Source: a virus
DNA length: 22,842 bases
Reading direction: 5' to 3' (one strand)
Virus record (IMG/VR): IMGVR_UViG_3300027822_000038
Coordinates: 1-22,842 of that record
Part shown: positions 2,043-22,169 of the stretch, piece by piece
How the letters are laid out: each line of letters begins with the position of its first letter
Position numbering within the stretch: position 1 is the first letter of the stretch
Position numbers and translations under genes: made by a program
Notes under the pieces: model-generated
Database searches by the model: none
Seen by the model: the letters and a program-made list of their open reading frames with translations, nothing else
Told to the model about the DNA's origin: nothing

Positions 2043-2374
2043 ATGTGTTTTGTTTTGAAACAGAATATTCGTCAATTATAGCTGGTTGCTGTAATCGAGA
2101 ATTTTTTGTAACGACTGCTTTTAGAAATGCTCGCTTAAAAGATAAGAATGGATTTTATTGTCCTTATTGCGGGAACTCGAGAGTATTCACAAACAAAACA
2201 GAAGAAGAAATATTAAGGGAGAAATTACAGGAAAAAGAGGAGCAATTAAAAAGAGCAATGACTTGTAGTCGAATTCACTACAGCGAGAGACGTAAGCTCG
2301 AGAAAGCTCTTTCCGCACAAAAAGGTGTAAGTACCAGGCTTAGAAAAAAACTAATCCCGGAGGTTAATAAATGA
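2039..2374 (+). CDS. Conserved phage-type CPYCG zinc-ribbon/coiled-coil protein
   Basis: About 111 residues from the ATG at 2039, chosen because ATGA overlaps the previous stop and GAGAGG lies about 8 nt upstream; a GTG at 2030 is an alternative. The N-terminal third has a CC pair and a CPYCG motif, suggesting a small zinc-binding ribbon. The rest is a charged helix rich in Glu/Lys/Arg, ending in a basic segment (VSTRLRKKL). Small proteins with a C-P-x-C-G motif followed by a long charged helix and a VTRLRKR-like end are recurrent in phage genomes. Their function is unknown to me. The stop overlaps the next start (ATGA). Confidence 0.6.
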   Translation: MNVFCFETEYSSIIAGCCNREFFVTTAFRNARLKDKNGFYCPYCGNSRVFTNKTEEEILREKLQEKEEQLKRAMTCSRIHYSERRKLEKALSAQKGVSTRLRKKLIPEVNK

Positions 2375-3009
2375 AATGTCCATCGTCTGAATTACCTCCG
2401 CGAATATCCAGACTTCCAGTAGATAGGAGGGGTTATCCGGTCCCCTGGTTCGTTGCTTGGATTGACGGAGATCCGGATTTTAGAGTTATAGGCGAGGGAA
2501 AGATAATTGATGCAATACGTTTTCAAAAGTGTTGGGTATGCGGTCAGAAATTAGGAGCTTATAAAGCTTTTGTTATAGGTCCTATGTGCTCGATTAATCG
2601 TATTAGTAGCGAGCCTCCAAGTCACAAAGACTGTGCTATTTATGCCAGTACGCATTGCCCGTTTTTAACTGAACCGAGAGAAAAGCGAAACGAAAAAGGC
2701 TTAGGAGAGTTAGAAGCTCAAGAGCCGGCGGGAGTTATGCTCAAACACAATCCCGGAGTTGCTTTAGTGTGGATTACTAAAAAGCACAGAAATCTCCGCT
2801 TTAAAAAGGGCATTCTTTTTGACGTAGGAAATCCCGTCGAGGTTCTTTGGTATTGCAAAGGACGCCCAGCTAAGCGCGTCGAGGTATTGGAATCAATAGA
2901 AAAAGGTTATCCGATTTTACAACAATCCGCCGAGAAAGATGGTCCTAAAGCACTTGAAGAATTAGTAAAGCGTCGGGCTATTGCGGAGAAACTTATTCCG
3001 GAGGTATAA
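2371..3009 (+). CDS. Conserved hypothetical Cys/His-rich protein
   Basis: A 212-residue protein. The segment at about 48-95 contains CWVCG, then GPMC, then HKDC and THC, a Cys/His spacing suited to binding zinc. The surrounding pattern (FxKCWVCGxxLG, FVIGPMC, EPPSHxxCAxYA, CPFL) resembles a conserved hypothetical family I associate with phages and prophages of Proteobacteria. The C-terminal half holds a mixed alpha/beta part with no recognised motif. It begins at an ATGA overlap with the previous gene behind CGGAGG. Possible nucleic-acid-binding accessory protein; no activity can be assigned. Confidence 0.6.
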   Translation: MKCPSSELPPRISRLPVDRRGYPVPWFVAWIDGDPDFRVIGEGKIIDAIRFQKCWVCGQKLGAYKAFVIGPMCSINRISSEPPSHKDCAIYASTHCPFLTEPREKRNEKGLGELEAQEPAGVMLKHNPGVALVWITKKHRNLRFKKGILFDVGNPVEVLWYCKGRPAKRVEVLESIEKGYPILQQSAEKDGPKALEELVKRRAIAEKLIPEV

Positions 3010-3433: not shown

Positions 3434-4039
3434 ATGACTGGCACATTCTTAGAAGCTTATGAGTATGCAAGAAAGTTCGAGGGTGGTTACAGCAATCATT
3501 CAAAAGATCCTGGAGGGGAAACTTGGAAAGGGATTGCTCGCAAAAAGCATCCTTCCTGGGAAGGCTGGCCCTCAATAGATAAGGCTAAGGCTGACGGCTA
3601 CAGGGGTAAAGGATTAGAACCGGTCTTGTCTGAAAATGTTTTTCTCCAGGATCAGGTACTAACATTTTACCGGCGAATGTTTTGGGAGCCTATTTGGGGA
3701 GATACGATCGCCGTTGCAAGTCAGAGAATGGCAAACGATATGTTTGATATGTCTATAAACCTCGGTATTGGAAGGGCAAGCGAATTTATGCAAAGGAGCT
3801 TGAATTTGCTAAACAGCAACGGCCAAAGTTGGGGAGAAATTGCCGTTGACGGAGATATAGGACCAGAAACAATGAAAGCCTTTCAGTCTTGCGTAAACGA
3901 TAAGCGCACCGGGGCGAGGCAATTATATAAGCAATTAAATCTATTTCAAGGCAGTTGGTATCAACATTTGATGGAGACTAACCCTAGCAGATTTGAGACA
4001 TTCATTGGCTGGTTTGCTCGGGTCGATTTTATTCAATGA
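3434..4039 (+). CDS. Endolysin: GH108-family N-acetylmuramidase with C-terminal peptidoglycan-binding domain
   Basis: A 201-residue protein. The N-terminus carries FEGGYSN...DPGGETWKGI (Glu16, then DPGG at 25-28), the signature of glycoside hydrolase family 108, whose Glu in the EGGY motif is catalytic. The C-terminal region from about residue 100 includes DMSINLG and VDGDIGPETMKAF, matching the peptidoglycan-binding domain usually paired with GH108. The enzyme cuts the glycan backbone of peptidoglycan at lysis. No signal sequence is seen, so export would depend on a holin, for which the gene at 115 is a candidate. Shine-Dalgarno AGGAGG lies about 9 nt upstream of the ATG. Length is normal for the family. 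Confidence 0.88.
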   Translation: MTGTFLEAYEYARKFEGGYSNHSKDPGGETWKGIARKKHPSWEGWPSIDKAKADGYRGKGLEPVLSENVFLQDQVLTFYRRMFWEPIWGDTIAVASQRMANDMFDMSINLGIGRASEFMQRSLNLLNSNGQSWGEIAVDGDIGPETMKAFQSCVNDKRTGARQLYKQLNLFQGSWYQHLMETNPSRFETFIGWFARVDFIQ

Positions 4040-5218: not shown

Positions 5219-5773
5219 ATGGAAAGCGATCCTAACTGGTTAAATGTCGCCTGGACATTCTTCCAAAACCTAAATGTACAACAGGGTCTAGTAATTGCCA
5301 ACTTTATTCTCGTGGGCGTCACTATAGTATTAGTTTTTATTACCCGGCGGTATGCGAATCACACTCAAAGAATGGCCGACATTATGCTTAAGGATTATCA
5401 ACTCCGGATTACACCCCAGTATGAAATAAATACACAATTAATCATAGAAGAATTGAAGTATATCGTTGCAGGTATAATAATTAGAAATGTCGGATTAACC
5501 CCCATTTTTATAAGAAATTTCACTGTTAAGGCTGTACCTATTGTAAGATTTGAGGTAAAAAAAGAAGTTTTATATCAAGTAAAAAGACAGATTAGAATAG
5601 ATCCGGGCGATGATGGGGATTACACCGAATTGACAGTCGGGGTTAGTGAAATAGTCGTAAACCCGCCTAAAGAAGGTGAAAAGTTCTTTGGTAAAGATTG
5701 TAATATAATCTTAACTTGTGAGATCTCTGGACCTACCCAGGATTTTAAACAGGAAAGAAGAGTTATTATTTAA
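5219..5773 (+). CDS. Membrane-anchored hypothetical protein
   Basis: A 184-residue protein with one clear membrane segment at about residues 21-41 (Leu/Val/Ile/Phe-rich), followed by basic residues and a helical linker. From about residue 62 onward the chain alternates hydrophobic and polar residues like a beta-sandwich, with a segment (IIRNVGLTPIFIRNF) similar to the asparagine-glycine strands of many bacterial membrane-anchored beta-domain proteins. The positive-inside rule puts the C-terminal domain in the cytoplasm. The ribosome site is weak. Base use is AT-rich and lacks the hexamers frequent elsewhere. No function assigned; an exclusion-type accessory gene is possible. Confidence 0.5.
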   Translation: MESDPNWLNVAWTFFQNLNVQQGLVIANFILVGVTIVLVFITRRYANHTQRMADIMLKDYQLRITPQYEINTQLIIEELKYIVAGIIIRNVGLTPIFIRNFTVKAVPIVRFEVKKEVLYQVKRQIRIDPGDDGDYTELTVGVSEIVVNPPKEGEKFFGKDCNIILTCEISGPTQDFKQERRVII

Positions 5774-6316: not shown

Positions 6317-7525
6317 ATGTTTGAGTGGGGAGAGTTCTCCGAGAAAGGCCTCTTATCTATAGCCAATTCAAACGCCCGAATAAATATATGGGAAGGGGCC
6401 GTCAGGTCCTCAAAGACTATATGCTCACTTGTTAGATGGATCTCTTTTGTAGCCTCAGCTCCGCCCGGAGATCTCCTAATGTTCGGGAAAACCGAGAGGA
6501 CTTTAAAGCGCAACATATTAAACCCTCTTAAAGATATGTTAGGAAAGCAGTTTGATTTTAAGCTCGGCCAGGGCGAGGCTTGGATGTTCGGTAGAAAGAT
6601 TCTCATTGTCGGAGCTAACGACGAGAGAGCTGAGTCAAAGATCAGGGGCGGTACTCTCGCCGGCGCGTATGGAGACGAGCTCTCACTTACTCCCGAATCA
6701 TTTATCAAGATGTTGTTTTCAAGACTATCTGTCCCAGGGGCAAAGCTTTTCGGAACCACAAACCCAGACAGTCCATATCACTATATCAAGACCGAAATTA
6801 TCGACAATCCCAATATAGATAAAGCCGTATTTCATTTTGTATTAGAGGATAATCCGAATCTCTCTCAAGTCTTTATTGATGCACTCAAAAAAGAATATAT
6901 CGGCCTTTGGTATAAGCGTTTCATTCTGGGCCTTTGGGTTATGGCCGAAGGCGCGATATATGACATGTGGGATGATAAAACGCACCTAATCACGGCCCCG
7001 ACGGATATCGACGATTATTTAAAGATCTGGGTCTCAGTAGATTACGGGACCTCTAATCCTTGCACCTTCGGAATTTATGGAAAGCACAAAGACGGGAATA
7101 GGTACAAACTCGCCGAGTATTGGTTTGATTCTAAAGAGAGGGGATACCAAAAGACCGACTCAGACTATGGCGAGGATTTTGAGGAGTTTGTCGAGCCATT
7201 TAATAGCCGTCTTAAGGAGGTCTATGTTGACCCGTCCGCTTTATCGTTTAAAACAGAGCTCGAGCGTAGAGGTTTTGATGTACAGGACGCCATAAACGAC
7301 GTCTTAGACGGGATAAGAATTGTCTCGACTGAACTCGGTCAAGGTCGCTACTTTGTAGATCCGAGTTGTACTAACACAGCAAAAGAATATGTTTCATATG
7401 CCTGGGACTCCAAAGCCCAAAAACGCGGAGAGGATAAGCCTCTAAAACAAAACGATCACGCTATGGATTGCGACCGGTACGCTTTAGCATCTGAGTTATT
7501 AATTCCGGATTTTTATATCAAATAG
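6317..7525 (+). CDS. terL: Terminase large subunit (ATPase/nuclease)
   Basis: A 402-residue packaging motor of the PBSX-like type. Residues 26-34 (EGAVRSSKT) form the variant Walker A with Lys33. LAGAYGDE places Walker B Asp120 and catalytic Glu121. GTTNP at 146-150 is the coupling motif. The C-terminal RNase H-like nuclease has acidic residues in VSVDYGTSNP (Asp242), VYVDPSA (Asp305) and NDHAMD (Asp380, Asp384). The length is close to normal for compact TerL proteins. GAGGAG about 11 nt upstream supports the start. The last codons (DFYIK-stop) lie in an 18-bp sequence repeated downstream of the inserted cassette. Confidence 0.95.
   Translation: MFEWGEFSEKGLLSIANSNARINIWEGAVRSSKTICSLVRWISFVASAPPGDLLMFGKTERTLKRNILNPLKDMLGKQFDFKLGQGEAWMFGRKILIVGANDERAESKIRGGTLAGAYGDELSLTPESFIKMLFSRLSVPGAKLFGTTNPDSPYHYIKTEIIDNPNIDKAVFHFVLEDNPNLSQVFIDALKKEYIGLWYKRFILGLWVMAEGAIYDMWDDKTHLITAPTDIDDYLKIWVSVDYGTSNPCTFGIYGKHKDGNRYKLAEYWFDSKERGYQKTDSDYGEDFEEFVEPFNSRLKEVYVDPSALSFKTELERRGFDVQDAINDVLDGIRIVSTELGQGRYFVDPSCTNTAKEYVSYAWDSKAQKRGEDKPLKQNDHAMDCDRYALASELLIPDFYIK
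7508..7525 (+). repeat. Direct repeat, upstream copy (terL 3' end)
   Basis: GATTTTTATATCAAATAG is identical to 8231-8248, 723 bp away. This copy is the functional end of terL (codons for DFYIK and the stop). Similarity continues upstream in both copies (ATTCC), interrupted by a 3-nt length difference. Confidence 0.9.
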
Positions 7526-7560
7526 CTTTGTGAAACAAACATTCTAATTACTAAATATAT

Positions 7561-7590
7561 TTGACAATTGATTACAGGAATTGCTATAGT
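7561..7590 (+). promoter_or_regulatory. Sigma-70-type promoter of the IPTL-CTERM gene
   Basis: A perfect -35 TTGACA at 7561-7566 and -10 TATAGT at 7585-7590 are separated by 18 bp, and a TG at 7582-7583 gives an extended -10. Expected transcription start is near 7597, with the AAGGGGGA ribosome site at 7606-7613 and ATG at 7621. It is the only intergenic near-consensus promoter I find in the window, which suggests expression from the prophage or outside the phage programme. Confidence 0.82.
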
Positions 7591-7620
7591 ATCATACGTA
7601 AACTTAAGGGGGATTGTCTC

Positions 7621-8154
7621 ATGAAAAAGTTAATATTGGGTTTGTTAGTAACATTCTTCTTAGTACCAGCTATTCAAGGTGTTCCTCAAGCACAAGAAGA
7701 CATCACATTAGATGAATTTTTACAAATCTGTGAAGAGGATTTTTTTAGTTGTTATGATGACGCTCCAGAAGGCAAGGCGAAAGCTGAAGAAGCTATAGCA
7801 ACTGCTCAAAGTGTACCACCTCACCTAGTGGCCCCCGCTTGTGCAGACTTTTGTAATTCAGACCCTATAGATGGACAGGGAGCCCTTCGAAATACAATAA
7901 ACTGCACAGATGAACAATGCGAGAACCGCTGTACTGCTTTAAGCGGTATATTAGACGACGAAATCATGCAACTTATAGATATGATGGACTTTGAAGCTTT
8001 AAACGCTTTGTGCCCCTTGCCTGAACCTACACCGGAACCTGTAGTATCCCCAATTCCCACCTTTAACCAATGGGGCTTCATATCTTTAGCTGTAGTGCTC
8101 GCTCTTGTGGGATTAGGGGCTATTCTGGTAAGAAGAAGGAAAGTTAGGGCTTAA
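7621..8154 (+). CDS. Secreted Cys-rich protein with IPTL-CTERM exosortase-sorting tail (phage moron)
   Basis: A 177-residue protein. The ATG at 7621 is chosen over an upstream TTG at 7561 that is really the -35 box; AAGGGGGA lies 7 nt before. Residues 1-25 form a signal peptide (two Lys, hydrophobic core, probable cleavage before the acidic mature region). The mature part is acidic with eight Cys, compatible with four disulfides, then a Pro-rich linker (PEPTPEPVVSP). The C-terminus has IPTFNQWG, a hydrophobic helix and RRRK: the tripartite IPTL-CTERM signal (IPTLxxWG, here with Phe), known to co-occur with exosortase H (XrtH). The host would process and anchor or export the product. It has its own promoter and terminator, prefers GAA over GAG, and interrupts terL-portal. 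The role of the mature domain is unknown: adhesion, exclusion or conversion are inferences. Confidence 0.85.
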   Translation: MKKLILGLLVTFFLVPAIQGVPQAQEDITLDEFLQICEEDFFSCYDDAPEGKAKAEEAIATAQSVPPHLVAPACADFCNSDPIDGQGALRNTINCTDEQCENRCTALSGILDDEIMQLIDMMDFEALNALCPLPEPTPEPVVSPIPTFNQWGFISLAVVLALVGLGAILVRRRKVRA

Positions 8155-8187
8155 AGTCTAACAACACTTAAATTTAAATACTTCAAG

Positions 8188-8209
8188 GGGAGCTTCGGCT
8201 CCCTTTTTT
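8188..8209 (+). terminator. Intrinsic terminator of the IPTL-CTERM cassette
   Basis: GGGAGC (8188-8193), TTCG loop, GCTCCC (8198-8203), then six T. A C(UUCG)G tetraloop hairpin with a U-run is a textbook Rho-independent terminator. It faces the late genes, so transcription of portal onward needs antitermination or another promoter. Confidence 0.92.
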
Positions 8210-8218
8210 GTTTGTCCA

Positions 8219-8248
8219 CTCATTCCATCCGATTTTTATATCAAATAG
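8219..8248 (+). pseudogene. Remnant of a diverged terL 3' end (downstream direct repeat)
   Basis: Read in frame, 8219-8248 encodes LIPSDFYIK-stop; the real terL ends LIPDFYIK-stop. The last 18 bp (8231-8248) are identical to 7508-7525, and the upstream part differs by an in-frame 3-nt addition. No start codon or further terL similarity is seen upstream, where the terminator lies. It is therefore a leftover of a second terL allele at the right edge of the cassette. Confidence 0.75.
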
Positions 8249-8263
8249 ACCTATAAAGGTTAG

Positions 8264-8300
8264 TTGCATTCATAAACATTGAGATATATCTTCAAAAAAA
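8264..8300 (+). promoter_or_regulatory. Possible weak promoter / SD-less start region of the portal gene
   Basis: The leader has no Shine-Dalgarno. TTGCAT (8264-8269) and TATATC (8285-8290) are 15 bp apart and could be a weak promoter giving a nearly leaderless mRNA. The octamer TATATCTT (8285-8292) stands 8 nt before the ATG, and the same octamer stands 7 nt before the equally SD-less terS start. Confidence 0.3.
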
Positions 8301-10361
8301 ATGCGGATATCTCAATCGCTTAAATCATTTCTGACAGATTTCGACCGCGCTCCCTTGCCCTGGGAGGAGAAAGCGGTCGCCCAGATCCTAACCAGTTTTC
8401 AAGCCGGATCCCCTACTTATCCCAAAGCCGACTTTCTCCCTTTTGTGAGAGAGGGCTACAAGAAAAACATCCCCGTCTATGCTTGCATCAATGAAATTGC
8501 GAGCTCCTTTAACGAGCCCGATCTTGAAGTTGTGGACGGATCCAAGTCTCCTATTCCTAATCATCCTTTTAATATTTTGCTCAATAAGCCTAACCCCTTC
8601 TATTCGACATTTGAATTTATAGAGAGATACGTCCTCCATTTGTTATTAGCCGGAAATGCTTATATCGAGAAAGTCAGATCCGGATCCGACCGAGTTGTCG
8701 AATTGTGGTTATTACGTCCGGACAGAATAAAGATTGCTCTCGATAATGAGAACTTTATTAGAGGATATGTATATACGATCGAGGGGAGAGAAACTTTTCT
8801 CGAGTCAAGAGACATTATTCATTTAAAACTCCCGGATCCGGAGGACGAGTTTTTTGGCATGTCGCCACTTAGGACCGGAAACCGAGATATTGCAACCGAC
8901 AACGAGGCGACTGATTATACAAAAGTATTGCTCGAGAATATGGCCGTTACAGGAACCATAATTCAAACGCAAAAGTCACTTGACGACGCTGAGACTGAGA
9001 AATACGAAAGAGCCTGGATTAAAAAATTTGGCAAGGGGGGAAGGGGCCGGCCGGCGTTCATGCCAAAAGGGGCCGAGGTAAAAACGATCGGTCAAAGTGT
9101 AAGAGATCTCATGCTCCCGGATCTGTCCGGAATGACCGAGACCCGTATTTGTTCATTGCTCCAGGTCCCGCCGATCCTAATTCATATCAAAGCAGGGCTT
9201 GACGCCTCGACTTATTCTAATTACGGAACTGCAAAGCTTTCTTTCTGGGACGAGACAATGATCCCTCACTTGGAGAGATTAGTTCAAAAGCTTAATGCTG
9301 AATTGCTTCCGGACCTAGAGACCAGGGCGGACCGCAAGATTGTTGCAAATACTAAAAATGTAAAAGCATTTCAGGAACGCGAGTCTAAACGGAAAGCTCA
9401 GATTACAGCCTCTTATACTTCCGGACTTGCTACTTTAAACGAAGCAAGGGCGGAAATAGGTCTCCCGAGAGTAGTCGGCGGAGACGTCTTTGTCAGAGGC
9501 CTTGCACAAGTAACGGTCGACGCTACGTTTGAGAGATCCCCTTCTAAAACTTTAAAGCTTCTATCTCCGGAGAAGAAAGGCGCGCTCGACGGCTTGAGAA
9601 TAGCTCTCGGCCGAAACGCATTCGCTGATCTATTCCTCGAGAAGCTCGAGAAGTGGGCGAAAAAAGAATTTAAAGCCCAGGCCAAAGACATATTAAACGA
9701 ATTAGACACTCTTGGAAAAGCAATATCACCATCTCAATTAGAGAAGATGATTAATTCGTTCGGAGCTTTTAGGACCTTATGGGAGGCCCGCATTAAAGAC
9801 GGAGCTGGTCCTATTTTATTTGAGCTAATATCCGGAGCCGGTGAATTTGCCGGCGCGGATCTCGGAGTCCAGTTTGACCAGGCGAGCGAGCAGGTCCTTA
9901 AGTTTGTCGACGAGTATTCGATTAAATTTGCAAAGCGCGTTAATAAAACGACTGAGGATTCAGTTCGCAAGGTCCTATTAAACGGACAAGCCGAGGGTCA
10001 ATCAATAGCAGAGATAAGGAAAGCATTACAAGGCGAGTTTAAGACCTGGGACACGGTTCGAGCTGATAGAGTTGCAAGATCTGAAACAATACGCTCGGCA
10101 AACATGGGAGCGAAAATGTCCTATAAACAAGCCGGCGTTTTGAAGATTAAATGGACTGATTCAAACGACGACAGTGTGTGTCCTTATTGCGAAGGTCTTG
10201 ACGGTACAGTCGTCGGAGTAGATGACAATTTTGTAAATCAAGGGGATTCGTTTCAACCCGAGGGCGCGAGCTCGCCACTAGCTACAGAGTACGGAGCGGT
10301 CGAAGTCCCTCCAGCTCACCCGGCTTGCAGGTGCTCGATAGTCCCGGAGTTTGACGATTAA
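8301..10361 (+). CDS. Portal protein fused to a Mu F-like minor head domain
   Basis: A 686-residue protein. Residues about 1-410 resemble HK97-family portals: a Pro-rich stretch of the N-domain, NKPNPFYSTFEF, LLAGNAYIEK, WLLRPDRI, IIHLKLPDPED and FGMSPL, then the stem/clip region and LLQVPPILI. Residues about 440-686 are a Mu gpF-like domain, with ARSET at 592-596, then C627-P-Y-C630 and H673-P-A-C676-R-C678, a zinc-type signature at the C-terminus. Portal forms the dodecameric DNA channel; MuF proteins are minor capsid components sometimes ejected with DNA. Usually these are separate genes, so each portal subunit here would carry one MuF domain. The start lacks a Shine-Dalgarno. The next gene follows after 18 nt. 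Confidence 0.9.
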   Translation: MRISQSLKSFLTDFDRAPLPWEEKAVAQILTSFQAGSPTYPKADFLPFVREGYKKNIPVYACINEIASSFNEPDLEVVDGSKSPIPNHPFNILLNKPNPFYSTFEFIERYVLHLLLAGNAYIEKVRSGSDRVVELWLLRPDRIKIALDNENFIRGYVYTIEGRETFLESRDIIHLKLPDPEDEFFGMSPLRTGNRDIATDNEATDYTKVLLENMAVTGTIIQTQKSLDDAETEKYERAWIKKFGKGGRGRPAFMPKGAEVKTIGQSVRDLMLPDLSGMTETRICSLLQVPPILIHIKAGLDASTYSNYGTAKLSFWDETMIPHLERLVQKLNAELLPDLETRADRKIVANTKNVKAFQERESKRKAQITASYTSGLATLNEARAEIGLPRVVGGDVFVRGLAQVTVDATFERSPSKTLKLLSPEKKGALDGLRIALGRNAFADLFLEKLEKWAKKEFKAQAKDILNELDTLGKAISPSQLEKMINSFGAFRTLWEARIKDGAGPILFELISGAGEFAGADLGVQFDQASEQVLKFVDEYSIKFAKRVNKTTEDSVRKVLLNGQAEGQSIAEIRKALQGEFKTWDTVRADRVARSETIRSANMGAKMSYKQAGVLKIKWTDSNDDSVCPYCEGLDGTVVGVDDNFVNQGDSFQPEGASSPLATEYGAVEVPPAHPACRCSIVPEFDD

Positions 10362-16379: not shown

Positions 16380-16424
16380 CTTTTAGAGAAGCAAAGGGGT
16401 AATCCCTAATAATTGGAGGTTTTT

Positions 16425-16967
16425 ATGTCTTTAGAGTTTTTGGAAAACGACGGTTTTAAGTTTATGGCCGAAGACGAAGAGGGAGCTCTCACCGAAGAGA
16501 GAAAAGGATCATGCCGAAAAATGAGCATGAAGACTCAGCGTCGCATTAACGAATGGCTTTCTAAAAAGTACGACCAGAAAGTCGAGATAATGGGAACCCT
16601 CTTCGCAAAGAAAAACCAGGCCGTGAATGAAGAGAACGGAGAGCCGAAGAAAGACGAGGAGGGAAACCAGGTTTATGACACGCTTTGGAATACCCTCTCT
16701 CAAGACGAGAGATTTGAGATATACGCTCGGACGATAAAAGCTCAGAACCCTCACCTGGAGCTTGACGATATTTATTCTATGGCCTTTGTAGACGCTGACT
16801 CGATTGTTACCAGAATGTTCGGAATAGAAAAGGATGCAATCGAGCAAGCCCTACAAGGGAGGGATCTTGATTTTTTGTCAGAATCCGAGAAAGCGAATAC
16901 GGAGACTGGAACTGCGGAGAATGCCGAGAGCTCGGACTCTGCGAAGAGCGAAACTGCGGAGGCGTAA
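16425..16967 (+). CDS. Tail assembly chaperone G-like protein
   Basis: A 180-residue protein from the ATG at 16425 (TTGGAGG lies just before; the in-frame TTG at 16413 is part of that site's leader). Residues 1-145 are acidic and alpha-helical; the C-terminal 30 residues are a disordered Glu/Ser/Ala/Thr tail. Position between tail tube and tape measure, and the frameshift signal at codons 149-151, define it as the shorter product of a lambda G/GT-type pair. The chaperone coats the tape measure so that tube protein can assemble. Confidence 0.75.
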   Translation: MSLEFLENDGFKFMAEDEEGALTEERKGSCRKMSMKTQRRINEWLSKKYDQKVEIMGTLFAKKNQAVNEENGEPKKDEEGNQVYDTLWNTLSQDERFEIYARTIKAQNPHLELDDIYSMAFVDADSIVTRMFGIEKDAIEQALQGRDLDFLSESEKANTETGTAENAESSDSAKSETAEA

Positions 16968-17218
16968 TTTATGATCCGAAAACGACATACGTTTTCGGAG
17001 ATCTCGAGATTCAGCATTGTCCGATCTGGTTTCTCGATAACGAGATCTCCAGCTCCGCGATCGAGGATTTTAAATTATGGCAATGGCATAAAGGCGGAGG
17101 TCTTGTAATCAGCCTAACCGAATATTGGGACGCCGATTATGACCAGATGAAAGCTTTTGATATTTTGAACGCGGTAAGTGCTGAGGTTAATAAAAATAAA
17201 GAGGGCAATAAAGACTAA
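16425..17218 (+). CDS. Tail assembly chaperone GT, -1 frameshift fusion
   Basis: Translation to codon 150-151 of G, then a -1 slip on T TTT TTG (16871-16877), continues to TAA at 17216-17218 for about 264 residues. The T part is in the frame expected for a -1 shift; that frame is closed by a TGA at 16868-16870, just before the slip site, and open afterwards. It has no sensible start of its own. The T segment begins with a Cys motif (NCGECRELGLCEERNCGG), then YDPKTTYVFGDLEIQHCPIW and an acidic/basic helical end. This Cys cluster is encoded upstream of the G stop, so the slip must occur before it. GT would bridge tube protein and tape measure. The TAATG overlap couples to the tape measure gene. 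Confidence 0.82.
16855..16877 (+). promoter_or_regulatory. Programmed -1 frameshift signal (SD stimulator plus T TTT TTG)
   Basis: The slippery heptamer T TTT TTG at 16871-16877 is in the correct register with the G frame (GAT TTT TTG). AAGGGAGGG at 16855-16863 is a Shine-Dalgarno-like sequence whose GGAGG core ends 8 nt before the heptamer, close to the distance at which such sites stimulate -1 frameshifting in E. coli dnaX. No start codon sits at an initiating distance that would otherwise explain this SD. Confidence 0.78.
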
Positions 17219-20200: not shown

Positions 20201-21390
20201 TAAACTTGACGATTGATTCTCTTAGAGCGTTGCTGGATCAAGAAAATTTAAGCGCACAAGAGAGAGAGGCACTATTAAGGCAACTCGACTCGGCCGTCGG
20301 AACATTATTCGATCAGGAATTGAAAGCTCAGCAAGCAAAAATACAGGCTCAGAATCAGGCCTTGCAGAATCAATTAACCGCCGAGATCTCAGCAAACAAT
20401 CAAAAGATCCAATTAATAACCCAGAGAACAAACGCTGATATCGCGTCCCTTACTCAGTTGAGAGACTTTGCTCTCGAATTTCAAAATGTATCCGATTCTT
20501 TAAAAGGAGATCTTCAAGGATTATTTACCGGACCGTCTTCTATACTGAGCTCGTTTGAAAAGCTTAATTTTATACAGGGCGAGATTGCAAGCGCGCAACA
20601 AAAGTTAAGTCAAGCCCAGGGTCCGGAGGAAAGACTAGAGGCTATACAAAAACTCCAGGCTCTCCAGGGCGATCTTATCTCTCTCGGAGCCTCGGCTTTT
20701 GGAACCGCCTCTCCGGAATTTCAAGCAATATTTAGAACGGTAGCCGACGAGCTCCAGAGTCTAGTTGATAAGGCCGATGCTGAGGGATTAAAGGCTGATG
20801 ATCTAAACGATAAAATAAATATTCTTACTGCAACCCTCGAGTCCCAGGTCTCAGCACTAAGGGCCGAGAACGAAAGGAATCAAGGTCAATTATCAAACCT
20901 CGGATCTCAGCAAGTACAGCAACAAACGATTATGTCCTCCCGGCTCCTCGAGCTCGTTGAATTTATGCAGGGCCAAGCAAAGAGCTTACTGGACGAGCAA
21001 GTCGCCTTTCTCCAAGAGATCGGAGTCGATACTTCCAAGCTCGCCCCTCTTGAGGCATTGGGCGCGGAGCAATTAATAACTCTCAGATCTATAGAAAACC
21101 TTCTCCAAAGCCTCCAGGGATTTAGAGGAGGGTCTAACGGCGTTCGGGACTTCGGATCCGGGACGGCCGTCGTTCTGCATGGACGCGAGGAAGTCTTGAA
21201 AGAAGGTCAAAGGAGCTCGGCCGGAGGATCCTCGAGAGTTGACATACACCACATAATAGAATTTGTCGGCGACGTTACCGAACAATCGGCAAGCTTACAG
21301 AGTCACGCAATAATGAGAGACATAGCCAACTCCGCCAGGGACGGTGAGATCCATTTCGCCATTATGGAAGGCGGACAAAGGAGGCGTTAA
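17218..21390 (+). CDS. Tail tape measure protein
   Basis: A 1390-residue protein, by far the largest in the window, mostly helical. Features: N-terminal coiled coil (1-60); hydrophobic Gly/Ala segment (about 65-88); FGDELQKASIRTGVAVETL, seen in tape measure proteins; LMDLFGRSGVDLIPT; Lys/Glu coiled coil at about 425-515; Gly-rich hydrophobic stretch at about 620-700; Gln-rich coiled coil at about 1020-1060 and later; and a C-terminal RDFGSGTAVVLHGREEVL motif (about 1310) that recurs near the end of many tape measures. It sets tail length: with the usual ~0.15 nm per residue, about 200 nm. Start at the TAATG overlap with GT; only a weak GAGGG precedes it, in line with coupled translation. Confidence 0.92.
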   Translation: MAEVVQYEVQAKLQDAIKQTDKFEKAVKELGDQGTKTSGKFAKLEKNAGSLGNKFSAIAKSAGSIAKGVGVASVAVLGLGTALFAIAKSTANFGDELQKASIRTGVAVETLSLLKATAEENDATFAQVSTSLKFLNKGIDEFKLGAGPGAIAFERLGITAEDFKKAGGDITGILPVLIDRIGNLGSQSAKTRILMDLFGRSGVDLIPTIQALADNGDELAKRFEKAGLIVGKQFADDSARFNDSIKRVQDSLSGLKTTIGADLLPVFADMLEDLSDWIADNRTIVAQKVQDTFTKIADALPKLANFAGQTAEAVGRLVGAFEEVNAKGQPVADFLNDIQSKLNDPKLGEFIRENFLGGFNFKEKFFPTEEIDELGSTALFTAGSIGQLGSQLTDLDGNMQLVAKSTKEVEKENKNLKDLYPPLTTKTKAQKTELEKLNEAITKENEKLIEQNRLVALEGETRIKVESAILREKGVKEDLVQINQDLKLEQIEINKRMEDFSDLIDKFPLVRFNQNLDTTFEKLSKIESIEFKNIGGLVVPFVNFEKGAGEAVEEVKGSLTAVDVFASDIASNINDAFSNTLNELVFDFENVGKSIKDILKGIGNSFFQLISTIATNPIRIALSGGGGPGGQSLDIGAGIGSLFGGIKNSFNALGNLVGLGGGINPAVGFLSTLGGAIPAIGIIAGAVAGFASLISGLFKKTPRLDIDFDKLRNDFGKKIGQVAKIGDFFDEELVDNIINISVKRKVGLGLGRDKIKELIADRITGIAGGLQDLINTLPQEIAGSLNELLLNAELDTDTVIGGERFFEFDAKGKKVGKKFQTFIESELPAKFFGAIRESFFEPALQALGVSSEGTQNLIDDFLDKLKNAGSREARGQVGQEFLGDVAAFFEAFNFVTGNFEGSTRRVLSGLESLSAKLGFETVPSIDKLTGGLSRLIENAELDPETIQDFKTLRTAIIQAGQSASSSALSWIDFIESLNQKALQLGGTAIDTSGQLNLTIDSLRALLDQENLSAQEREALLRQLDSAVGTLFDQELKAQQAKIQAQNQALQNQLTAEISANNQKIQLITQRTNADIASLTQLRDFALEFQNVSDSLKGDLQGLFTGPSSILSSFEKLNFIQGEIASAQQKLSQAQGPEERLEAIQKLQALQGDLISLGASAFGTASPEFQAIFRTVADELQSLVDKADAEGLKADDLNDKINILTATLESQVSALRAENERNQGQLSNLGSQQVQQQTIMSSRLLELVEFMQGQAKSLLDEQVAFLQEIGVDTSKLAPLEALGAEQLITLRSIENLLQSLQGFRGGSNGVRDFGSGTAVVLHGREEVLKEGQRSSAGGSSRVDIHHIIEFVGDVTEQSASLQSHAIMRDIANSARDGEIHFAIMEGGQRRR

Positions 21391-22169
21391 TGAAAGGCTC
21401 GTCAATATATCTCAATTATACGATTTTAAGCTCCGACGAAAACTCCAACTGGCCCGCGTCTAACCTTAAGATTATCAGCTCTTCGACTCAGGCCTGGAGG
21501 TCTCCGGATACAACGGAATCTGAAATTATTATTGATCTCGGAGGAGCAAAGCAGGATCCGACAATCGGAATATACAGGGCGAACTTTGATTCGGTAACGA
21601 TACAGGGAAACACTTCGGACGCCTGGGGATCTCCAGCCTTTAGTCAGGTGTATTCAACAAGTTACGATCCTGAGCACTTTATTTATAAATTGAGAAAAGC
21701 TCTCGGAGCATCTTTTAATTATAGATATTTGAGGGTCCTCGTTACCGCTCAAACTCCTAACGACCAGGCGAGTTATTTTGAGGCCGGCGTCATATTTATA
21801 GCTGAAAGTGGCAACCTCGAGGACTTCAACGCGGAGCCCCTTAGCACATTTCAACATCCTTTGGGAATGACGACGAAACCACAAGAAACCATAGAACCTT
21901 ATGAAACCGGCCGATTCGATATCTTTCCCGATCACGACATACCTACAAGCGAGCTCTCTTTGCCGGGACATTTCTTAAACAATGAGGCAAATAGAACAAA
22001 AGTCCCAAAGGTTTTTAATCATCCTTTGAGGTCAATTATTTATCTTGACTTTGAAACTGAGTTTGAATGGGAGTGGTATTTATTACAAAGAACCGGTGCG
22101 GGATTAAGAAACGATAAATCGAGCCCGAGGTCTCGATTAATAAACCTGAATTTAAGAACAATTTTATAA
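21390..22169 (+). CDS. Putative distal tail / minor tail protein
   Basis: A 259-residue beta-rich protein. Residues 1-135 resemble a jelly-roll/discoidin-like domain (NWPASNLKI, AWRSPD, IIIDLGG, IYRANFDSVTIQGNTSDAW, YLRVLV), and the rest is a second domain ending in RSRLINLNLRTIL. The overlap with the tape measure stop (TAATG, AGGAGG 8 nt before) puts it where the distal tail protein or a minor tail protein lies in siphoviruses. A sugar- or tip-binding role for the N-terminal domain is inference from its pattern only. Confidence 0.55.
   Translation: MKGSSIYLNYTILSSDENSNWPASNLKIISSSTQAWRSPDTTESEIIIDLGGAKQDPTIGIYRANFDSVTIQGNTSDAWGSPAFSQVYSTSYDPEHFIYKLRKALGASFNYRYLRVLVTAQTPNDQASYFEAGVIFIAESGNLEDFNAEPLSTFQHPLGMTTKPQETIEPYETGRFDIFPDHDIPTSELSLPGHFLNNEANRTKVPKVFNHPLRSIIYLDFETEFEWEWYLLQRTGAGLRNDKSSPRSRLINLNLRTIL

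What the first reader, a model, noticed from the sequence alone, without database searches (positions are those of the whole stretch)
7561..8209. Autonomous cassette for an IPTL-CTERM (exosortase-sorted) Cys-rich protein inside the phage late operon
Seen: extended -10 promoter with perfect TTGACA, strong SD, signal peptide, acidic region with eight Cys, Pro linker, IPTFNQWG + hydrophobic helix + RRRK, UUCG terminator. Established: IPTL-CTERM tails are sorting signals associated with exosortase H in Gram-negative bacteria with extracellular polysaccharide systems. Inference: a phage-borne moron hijacks the host surface-sorting machinery, either for lysogenic conversion (biofilm/adhesion) or for surface exclusion of other phages. 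I know of no standard phage module of this kind.
Basis: partly seen in the sequence, partly recalled or inferred. Interest (0 to 1): 0.85.

Follow-up and report, generated by a model that had tools for sequence, protein, structure and literature searches.

The report
Phage moron with exosortase-type surface tag
A phage genome fragment carries, wedged between two packaging genes, a self-contained one-gene cassette for a secreted cysteine-rich protein whose tail looks like the IPTL surface-sorting tag that some bacteria process with exosortase H, so the phage probably uses its host's own machinery to change the host's surface.

Summary
ORF 7621-8154 (177 aa) has a signal-peptide-like start, eight Cys, a Pro-rich linker and IPTFNQWG + hydrophobic helix + RRRK. 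It has its own promoter (best in the window) and terminator (best in the 6 kb scanned). The tail is a divergent but real IPTL-CTERM: just under the curated HMM cut-offs, yet it beats 4,000 shuffled decoys and every unrelated ORF tested. New here: the cassette is flanked by an exact 18-bp repeat of the terL 3' end. The downstream copy reads in frame as a second terL C-terminus (LIPSDFYIK-stop versus LIPDFYIK-stop), a recombination scar that marks the cassette as an inserted moron. The terL relatives inspected lack it. Two other IMG/VR records, both prophage-like with integrase and repressor, carry canonical IPTL-CTERM genes inside the phage, one just downstream of cI, so phage-borne IPTL proteins recur. 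In Desulfobacterota the tag tracks exosortase H (10 of 11 versus 11 of 187 genomes). The host, its XrtH, lysogeny and function remain untested. Best reading: moron-encoded, exosortase-H-type surface protein, most likely for superinfection exclusion or surface modification. New variant of a known kind.

The parts
7499..7525 (+). terL 3' end (LLIPDFYIK-stop); 7508-7525 is the upstream copy of the 18-bp direct repeat
7526..8218 (+). inserted cassette (moron), GC 0.40; boundaries approximate at the right end
   Evidence: terL relatives inspected have no such gene between terL and portal
7561..7590 (+). sigma-70-type extended -10 promoter TTGACA-18-TATAGT
7604..7612 (+). Shine-Dalgarno-like AAGGGGG
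   Evidence: read from sequence
7621..8154 (+). cassette gene, 177 aa: signal-peptide-like N-terminus, acidic 8-Cys domain, Pro-rich linker, IPTL-CTERM-like tail
8053..8151 (+). IPTL-CTERM-like tail IPTFNQWGFISLAVVLALVGLGAILVRRRKVRA
8185..8206 (+). intrinsic terminator, UUCG loop and T-run
8219..8248 (+). relic of a second terL 3' end: CTCATTCCATCC + exact 18-bp repeat (8231-8248), in-frame LIPSDFYIK-stop
6317..7525 (+). terL, Terminase_6N (left neighbour)
8301..10361 (+). portal fused to a Mu F-like domain (right neighbour)

Best explanation
A transcriptionally autonomous moron was inserted by recombination at the 3' end of terL, leaving the last codons of a second terL allele downstream. It encodes a small secreted Cys-rich protein. 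The IPTL-CTERM-like tail would hold the protein in the inner membrane until host exosortase H cleaves it at the motif and passes the mature domain on to the outer surface. There it would alter the lysogen's or infected cell's surface; exclusion of competing phages is my first choice and adhesion or biofilm the second. Shown by sequence: cassette architecture, insertion scar, tail. Inferred: processing, surface location, expression in lysogens, function.
For: Promoter and terminator flank one gene. Exact 18-bp repeat whose downstream copy reads as a variant TerL C-terminus in frame; 1 of 3,000 Markov-resampled versions of the spacer matched terL anywhere as well as this. In the terL relatives inspected, terL is followed by portal or small phage genes and never by a secreted protein of this type. 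Cassette-gene GC3 is 0.315, against about 0.45-0.50 in most head and tail genes. The tail beats all decoys. Two prophage-like records, G210 and G211, carry canonical IPTL-CTERM genes between repressor, terminase and portal on one side and integrase on the other; in G210 the gene follows a CI-like repressor in the same direction. In 198 Desulfobacterota genomes IPTL tails co-occur with XrtH matches, 10/11 versus 11/187, Fisher p about 2e-10. An IPTL-CTERM protein has been located at the cell surface as the S-layer of a diderm bacterium (PMC8671808).
Against: The tail is under the curated cut-offs by hmmscan and its hydrophobic segment is two residues longer than the model. Host unknown, so XrtH cannot be checked; none in the fragment. 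No homologue of the mature domain was found and the structure model is unusable. No lysogeny gene was recognised in the window. Function rests on analogy only.
Confidence: 0.62

Rival explanations
1. An ordinary type I inner-membrane moron protein. The C-terminal helix is a permanent anchor, no exosortase is involved, and the Cys-rich domain acts in the periplasm, for example by blocking DNA injection as described for HK97 gp15 or T4 Imm.
For: Signal peptide plus one C-terminal helix plus basic tail is the minimum for such a protein. The tail is below the curated cut-offs. No exosortase is known for the host.
Against: The 8-residue motif itself carries much of the score: shuffling only those residues drops it from 26.6 to at most 18.5 bits in 2,000 trials. 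The order motif-helix-Arg cluster and the Pro-rich linker match sorted proteins.
Confidence: 0.25
2. A host surface protein gene caught in the viral contig by misassembly or by a very recent, non-functional insertion.
For: IPTL-CTERM proteins are normally chromosomal. Most IPTL tails in IMG/VR lie in large host-like proteins. The 18-bp repeat could be a join point. Reads are not available.
Against: The 18-bp repeat is shorter than usual assembly k-mers and its flank differs by an in-frame codon, which points to two terL alleles rather than one duplicated read. The gene order terS-terL-[cassette]-portal-protease-capsid is otherwise intact. Promoter, SD, ORF and terminator are all intact.
Confidence: 0.08
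3. A lytic-phase protein that sits in the late operon by chance and serves lysis or virion release, with no role in lysogens.
For: It lies among late genes. No integrase or repressor was recognised in the 22.8-kb fragment.
Against: It has its own strong vegetative promoter and its own terminator, which an operon gene would not need. Lysis genes lie elsewhere (GH108 endolysin 3434-4039).
Confidence: 0.05

Closest known systems
IPTL-CTERM / exosortase H system (TIGR04174, PF18203, TIGR04177)
   Same: Signal peptide, C-terminal IPTxxxWG motif, hydrophobic helix, Arg cluster; 26.6 bits against a model of 19 genuine tails
   Different: F at position 4 (L in 51 of 56 tails collected); longer helix; below curated cut-offs by hmmscan; carried by a phage; host and its XrtH unknown
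Phage morons (autonomous accessory genes with own promoter and terminator)
   Same: Single gene with own promoter and terminator, between genes adjacent in relatives, deviating composition, junction scar
   Different: Expression in a lysogen not shown; product carries an exosortase-type tag, for which I found no description in phages in the literature searched
HK97 gp15 and other membrane superinfection-exclusion proteins (named in PMC4737114)
   Same: Small phage-encoded envelope protein
   Different: No sequence relation tested; gp15 is a membrane protein, not a sorted surface protein
IPTL-CTERM genes in IMG/VR records G210 and G211 (loci L163, L167)
   Same: Short secreted protein with IPTL tail encoded inside a phage among accessory genes
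   Different: Canonical tails over the cut-off (PF18203 42-43 bits); different mature domain; near the repressor, not between terL and portal; paired with an NS-type endonuclease

Membership tests
IPTL-CTERM sorted proteins | C-terminal IPTxxxWG motif, helix and basic cluster | tested here: met
   IPTFNQWG-(hydrophobic)-RRRK; beats all shuffles
IPTL-CTERM sorted proteins | Score above curated HMM cut-off | tested here: inconclusive
   16.3 of 20.5 and 18.3 of 20.8 bits by hmmscan; 21.4 and called over the cut-off in the frame search
IPTL-CTERM sorted proteins | N-terminal signal peptide | tested here: inconclusive
   MKKLILGLLVTFFLVPAIQG by eye; helix 3-18 in a poor model; no SignalP
IPTL-CTERM sorted proteins | Exosortase H in the same cell | not testable with these tools
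   Host unknown; none in the 22.8-kb fragment
Phage moron | Own promoter and terminator around the gene | tested here: met
   (consensus matches, not transcripts)
Phage moron | Inserted between genes adjacent in relatives | tested here: met
   No comparable gene after terL in the relatives listed; nearest relative 63% identical; portal family often differs
Phage moron | Junction or compositional sign of acquisition | tested here: met
   18-bp repeat with variant TerL C-terminus; GC3 0.315
Phage moron | Expressed in the lysogen | not testable with these tools
   No transcript data
Superinfection exclusion protein | Blocks infection by related phages | not testable with these tools
   No assay; no homologue

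The most novel reading that the evidence does not exclude
Temperate phages of exosortase-H bacteria carry, as a recurring class, moron genes for IPTL-tagged proteins that the host's exosortase installs on the cell surface to exclude other phages, i.e. phage hijacking of a Gram-negative protein-sorting system.
Probability: 0.3. Interest if true: 0.75.

Novelty: new variant of a known kind. Interest (0 to 1): 0.52.

Why it matters
Exosortase targets are known as bacterial surface proteins. If phages carry such targets as morons, exosortase-dependent surfaces (S-layers, biofilm matrix) become a stage for phage-phage competition and lysogenic conversion, and the phage genes give small natural substrates with which to test what exosortase H does. 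The duplicated, diverged terL end is also a readable record of how a moron entered a packaging module.

Tried and rejected
Homologues of the cassette protein: none in viral contigs, phages, plasmids, GTDB contigs or PHROGs. Relatives by portal: no viral contig match; by capsid: one distant match. Structure: pLDDT 51, so no fold search was run. Host by terL: hits spread over Bacillota, Actinomycetota, Acidobacteriota, archaea and others, so no host call. Host by endolysin, by ORF 2371-3009 and by ORF 21390-22169: not decisive or no match. Host by tail mimicry: N at position 5 is common in Desulfobacterota, F at position 4 was seen once, in Acidobacteriota; too weak. 18-mer search of viral contigs: one chance match with no terL. 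GenBank phages: no match to an IPTL tail or to the L163 protein; BLAST low-complexity filtering limits this.

Full report
What the window is. It is a complete IMG/VR virus record of 22,842 bases classed as a linear fragment. It runs from lysis-region genes through terminase, portal, prohead protease, capsid and tail genes. No tRNA was found.

Observation. The gap between terL (6317-7525) and portal (8301-10361) holds one gene, 7621-8154. Upstream lies TTGACA-18-TATAGT with TG before the -10, the only site with at least 11 of 12 matches and TG in the window; the expected number of sites with at least 11 matches, TG or not, is 0.44 and no shuffle gave one with TG. Downstream lies a 9-pair UUCG hairpin with a T-run, the strongest terminator-like site in the 6 kb scanned. 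The product has a hydrophobic start (MKKLILGLLVTFFLVPAIQG), an acidic stretch with eight Cys, a Pro-rich linker, and IPTFNQWG-helix-RRRKVRA.

Is the tail a real IPTL-CTERM? By curated models it is borderline. I therefore collected genuine tails from viral contigs and 198 Desulfobacterota genomes, built a model from 19 of them and scored the protein: 26.6 bits. The best of 2,000 whole-tail shuffles was 9.9, the best of 2,000 shuffles of the motif alone was 18.5, and among 18,094 ORFs only genuine IPTL tails scored higher. The tail is real but divergent (F at position 4, two extra helix residues).

Insertion scar. An exact 18-bp repeat, GATTTTTATATCAAATAG, ends terL (7508-7525) and recurs after the terminator (8231-8248); no other copy exists within three mismatches. 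The downstream copy is preceded by CTC ATT CCA TCC, so it reads in frame as L-I-P-S-D-F-Y-I-K-stop, against L-I-P-D-F-Y-I-K-stop in terL. Synonymous changes and a one-codon insertion suggest the 3' remnant of a second terL allele. Inference: a recombination event brought in terL's end together with the cassette (or the cassette with a terL-end arm) and left the old terL terminus in front of portal. Among the terL relatives inspected, 45-63% identical, terL is followed by portal or small phage genes and no comparable secreted gene. This is a textbook moron layout.

Other phages with IPTL proteins. Three degenerate DNA scans of IMG/VR gave ten records with full IPTL tails and one truncated tail. 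Most are large host-like proteins. Two records from one metagenome are different. In G210 the order is portal (P22 type) ... CI-like repressor, IPTL-CTERM protein, NS-type endonuclease, deaminase-like protein ... methylase, integrase, then a host-like HAD gene. In G211 it is integrase, methylase ... IPTL protein, ImmA/IrrE-type HTH protein, endonuclease, IPTL protein, CI-like repressor ... terminase gpA, lambda-type portal. The main IPTL proteins of the two are 88% identical and the endonucleases 85%. So IPTL-tagged genes sit inside prophage-like records, in one case just downstream of the repressor and in the same direction, where lysogeny genes lie.

Sorting. In the same 198 Desulfobacterota genomes, XrtH matches (E <= 0.001, most below the curated cut-off) occur in 10 of 11 genomes with IPTL tails and 11 of 187 without, Fisher p about 2e-10. 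An IPTL-CTERM protein was located by immunogold at the S-layer of Methylomirabilis lanthanidiphila (PMC8671808). Motif-helix-basic tags read by exosortases are described in PMC3237569. So the tag predicts surface delivery if the host has XrtH. The host is unknown and could not be inferred.

Function. No homologue of the mature domain and no usable model exist. From the anatomy, a vegetative promoter, insulation by a terminator and surface targeting point to a surface change in the infected or lysogenic cell. I rank superinfection exclusion first, since small envelope proteins of phages commonly do this (PMC4737114), and adhesion or biofilm second. That choice is inference.

Verdict. I found no description of phage-borne exosortase targets in the papers searched (titles and abstracts only), but the library is partial.

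Noticed in passing
16871-16877 and 16413-17218: Slippery TTTTTTG in the gene before the tape measure; a -1 shift opens a frame running to about 17217, as in tail-assembly chaperone G/GT frameshifting.
   Followed up: partly
L163 2578-4134; L167 9728-13706: Two phages of one metagenome share an IPTL-CTERM protein (88%) and an NS-type endonuclease with a lipobox-like VSSC near its N-terminus (85%): possibly a pair of exported proteins acting on incoming DNA at the envelope.
   Followed up: partly
L221 9304-10551: An integrase-like gene ends next to a truncated VPTLNEWG tail on the other strand, as if a prophage had integrated at the end of a host IPTL-CTERM gene; integrase assigned by eye.
   Followed up: no
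1605-2042: 145-aa ORF with an N-terminal helix and an internal helix ending in a lipobox-like SAGC; could be spanin-like, which would fit a Gram-negative host.
   Followed up: no
8249-8301: Portal start ATG 8301 has no visible Shine-Dalgarno sequence, unlike most genes in the window; the cassette's terminator also lies upstream of it, so late transcription must read through or restart.
   Followed up: no
5219-5773: 184-aa orphan protein with an N-terminal membrane helix between small genes upstream of terS; another possible accessory gene.
   Followed up: no
G054 C321 5584-6380 and C191 3928-4608: In one Desulfobacterota genome XrtH lies directly beside IPTL-CTERM genes, twice.
   Followed up: no
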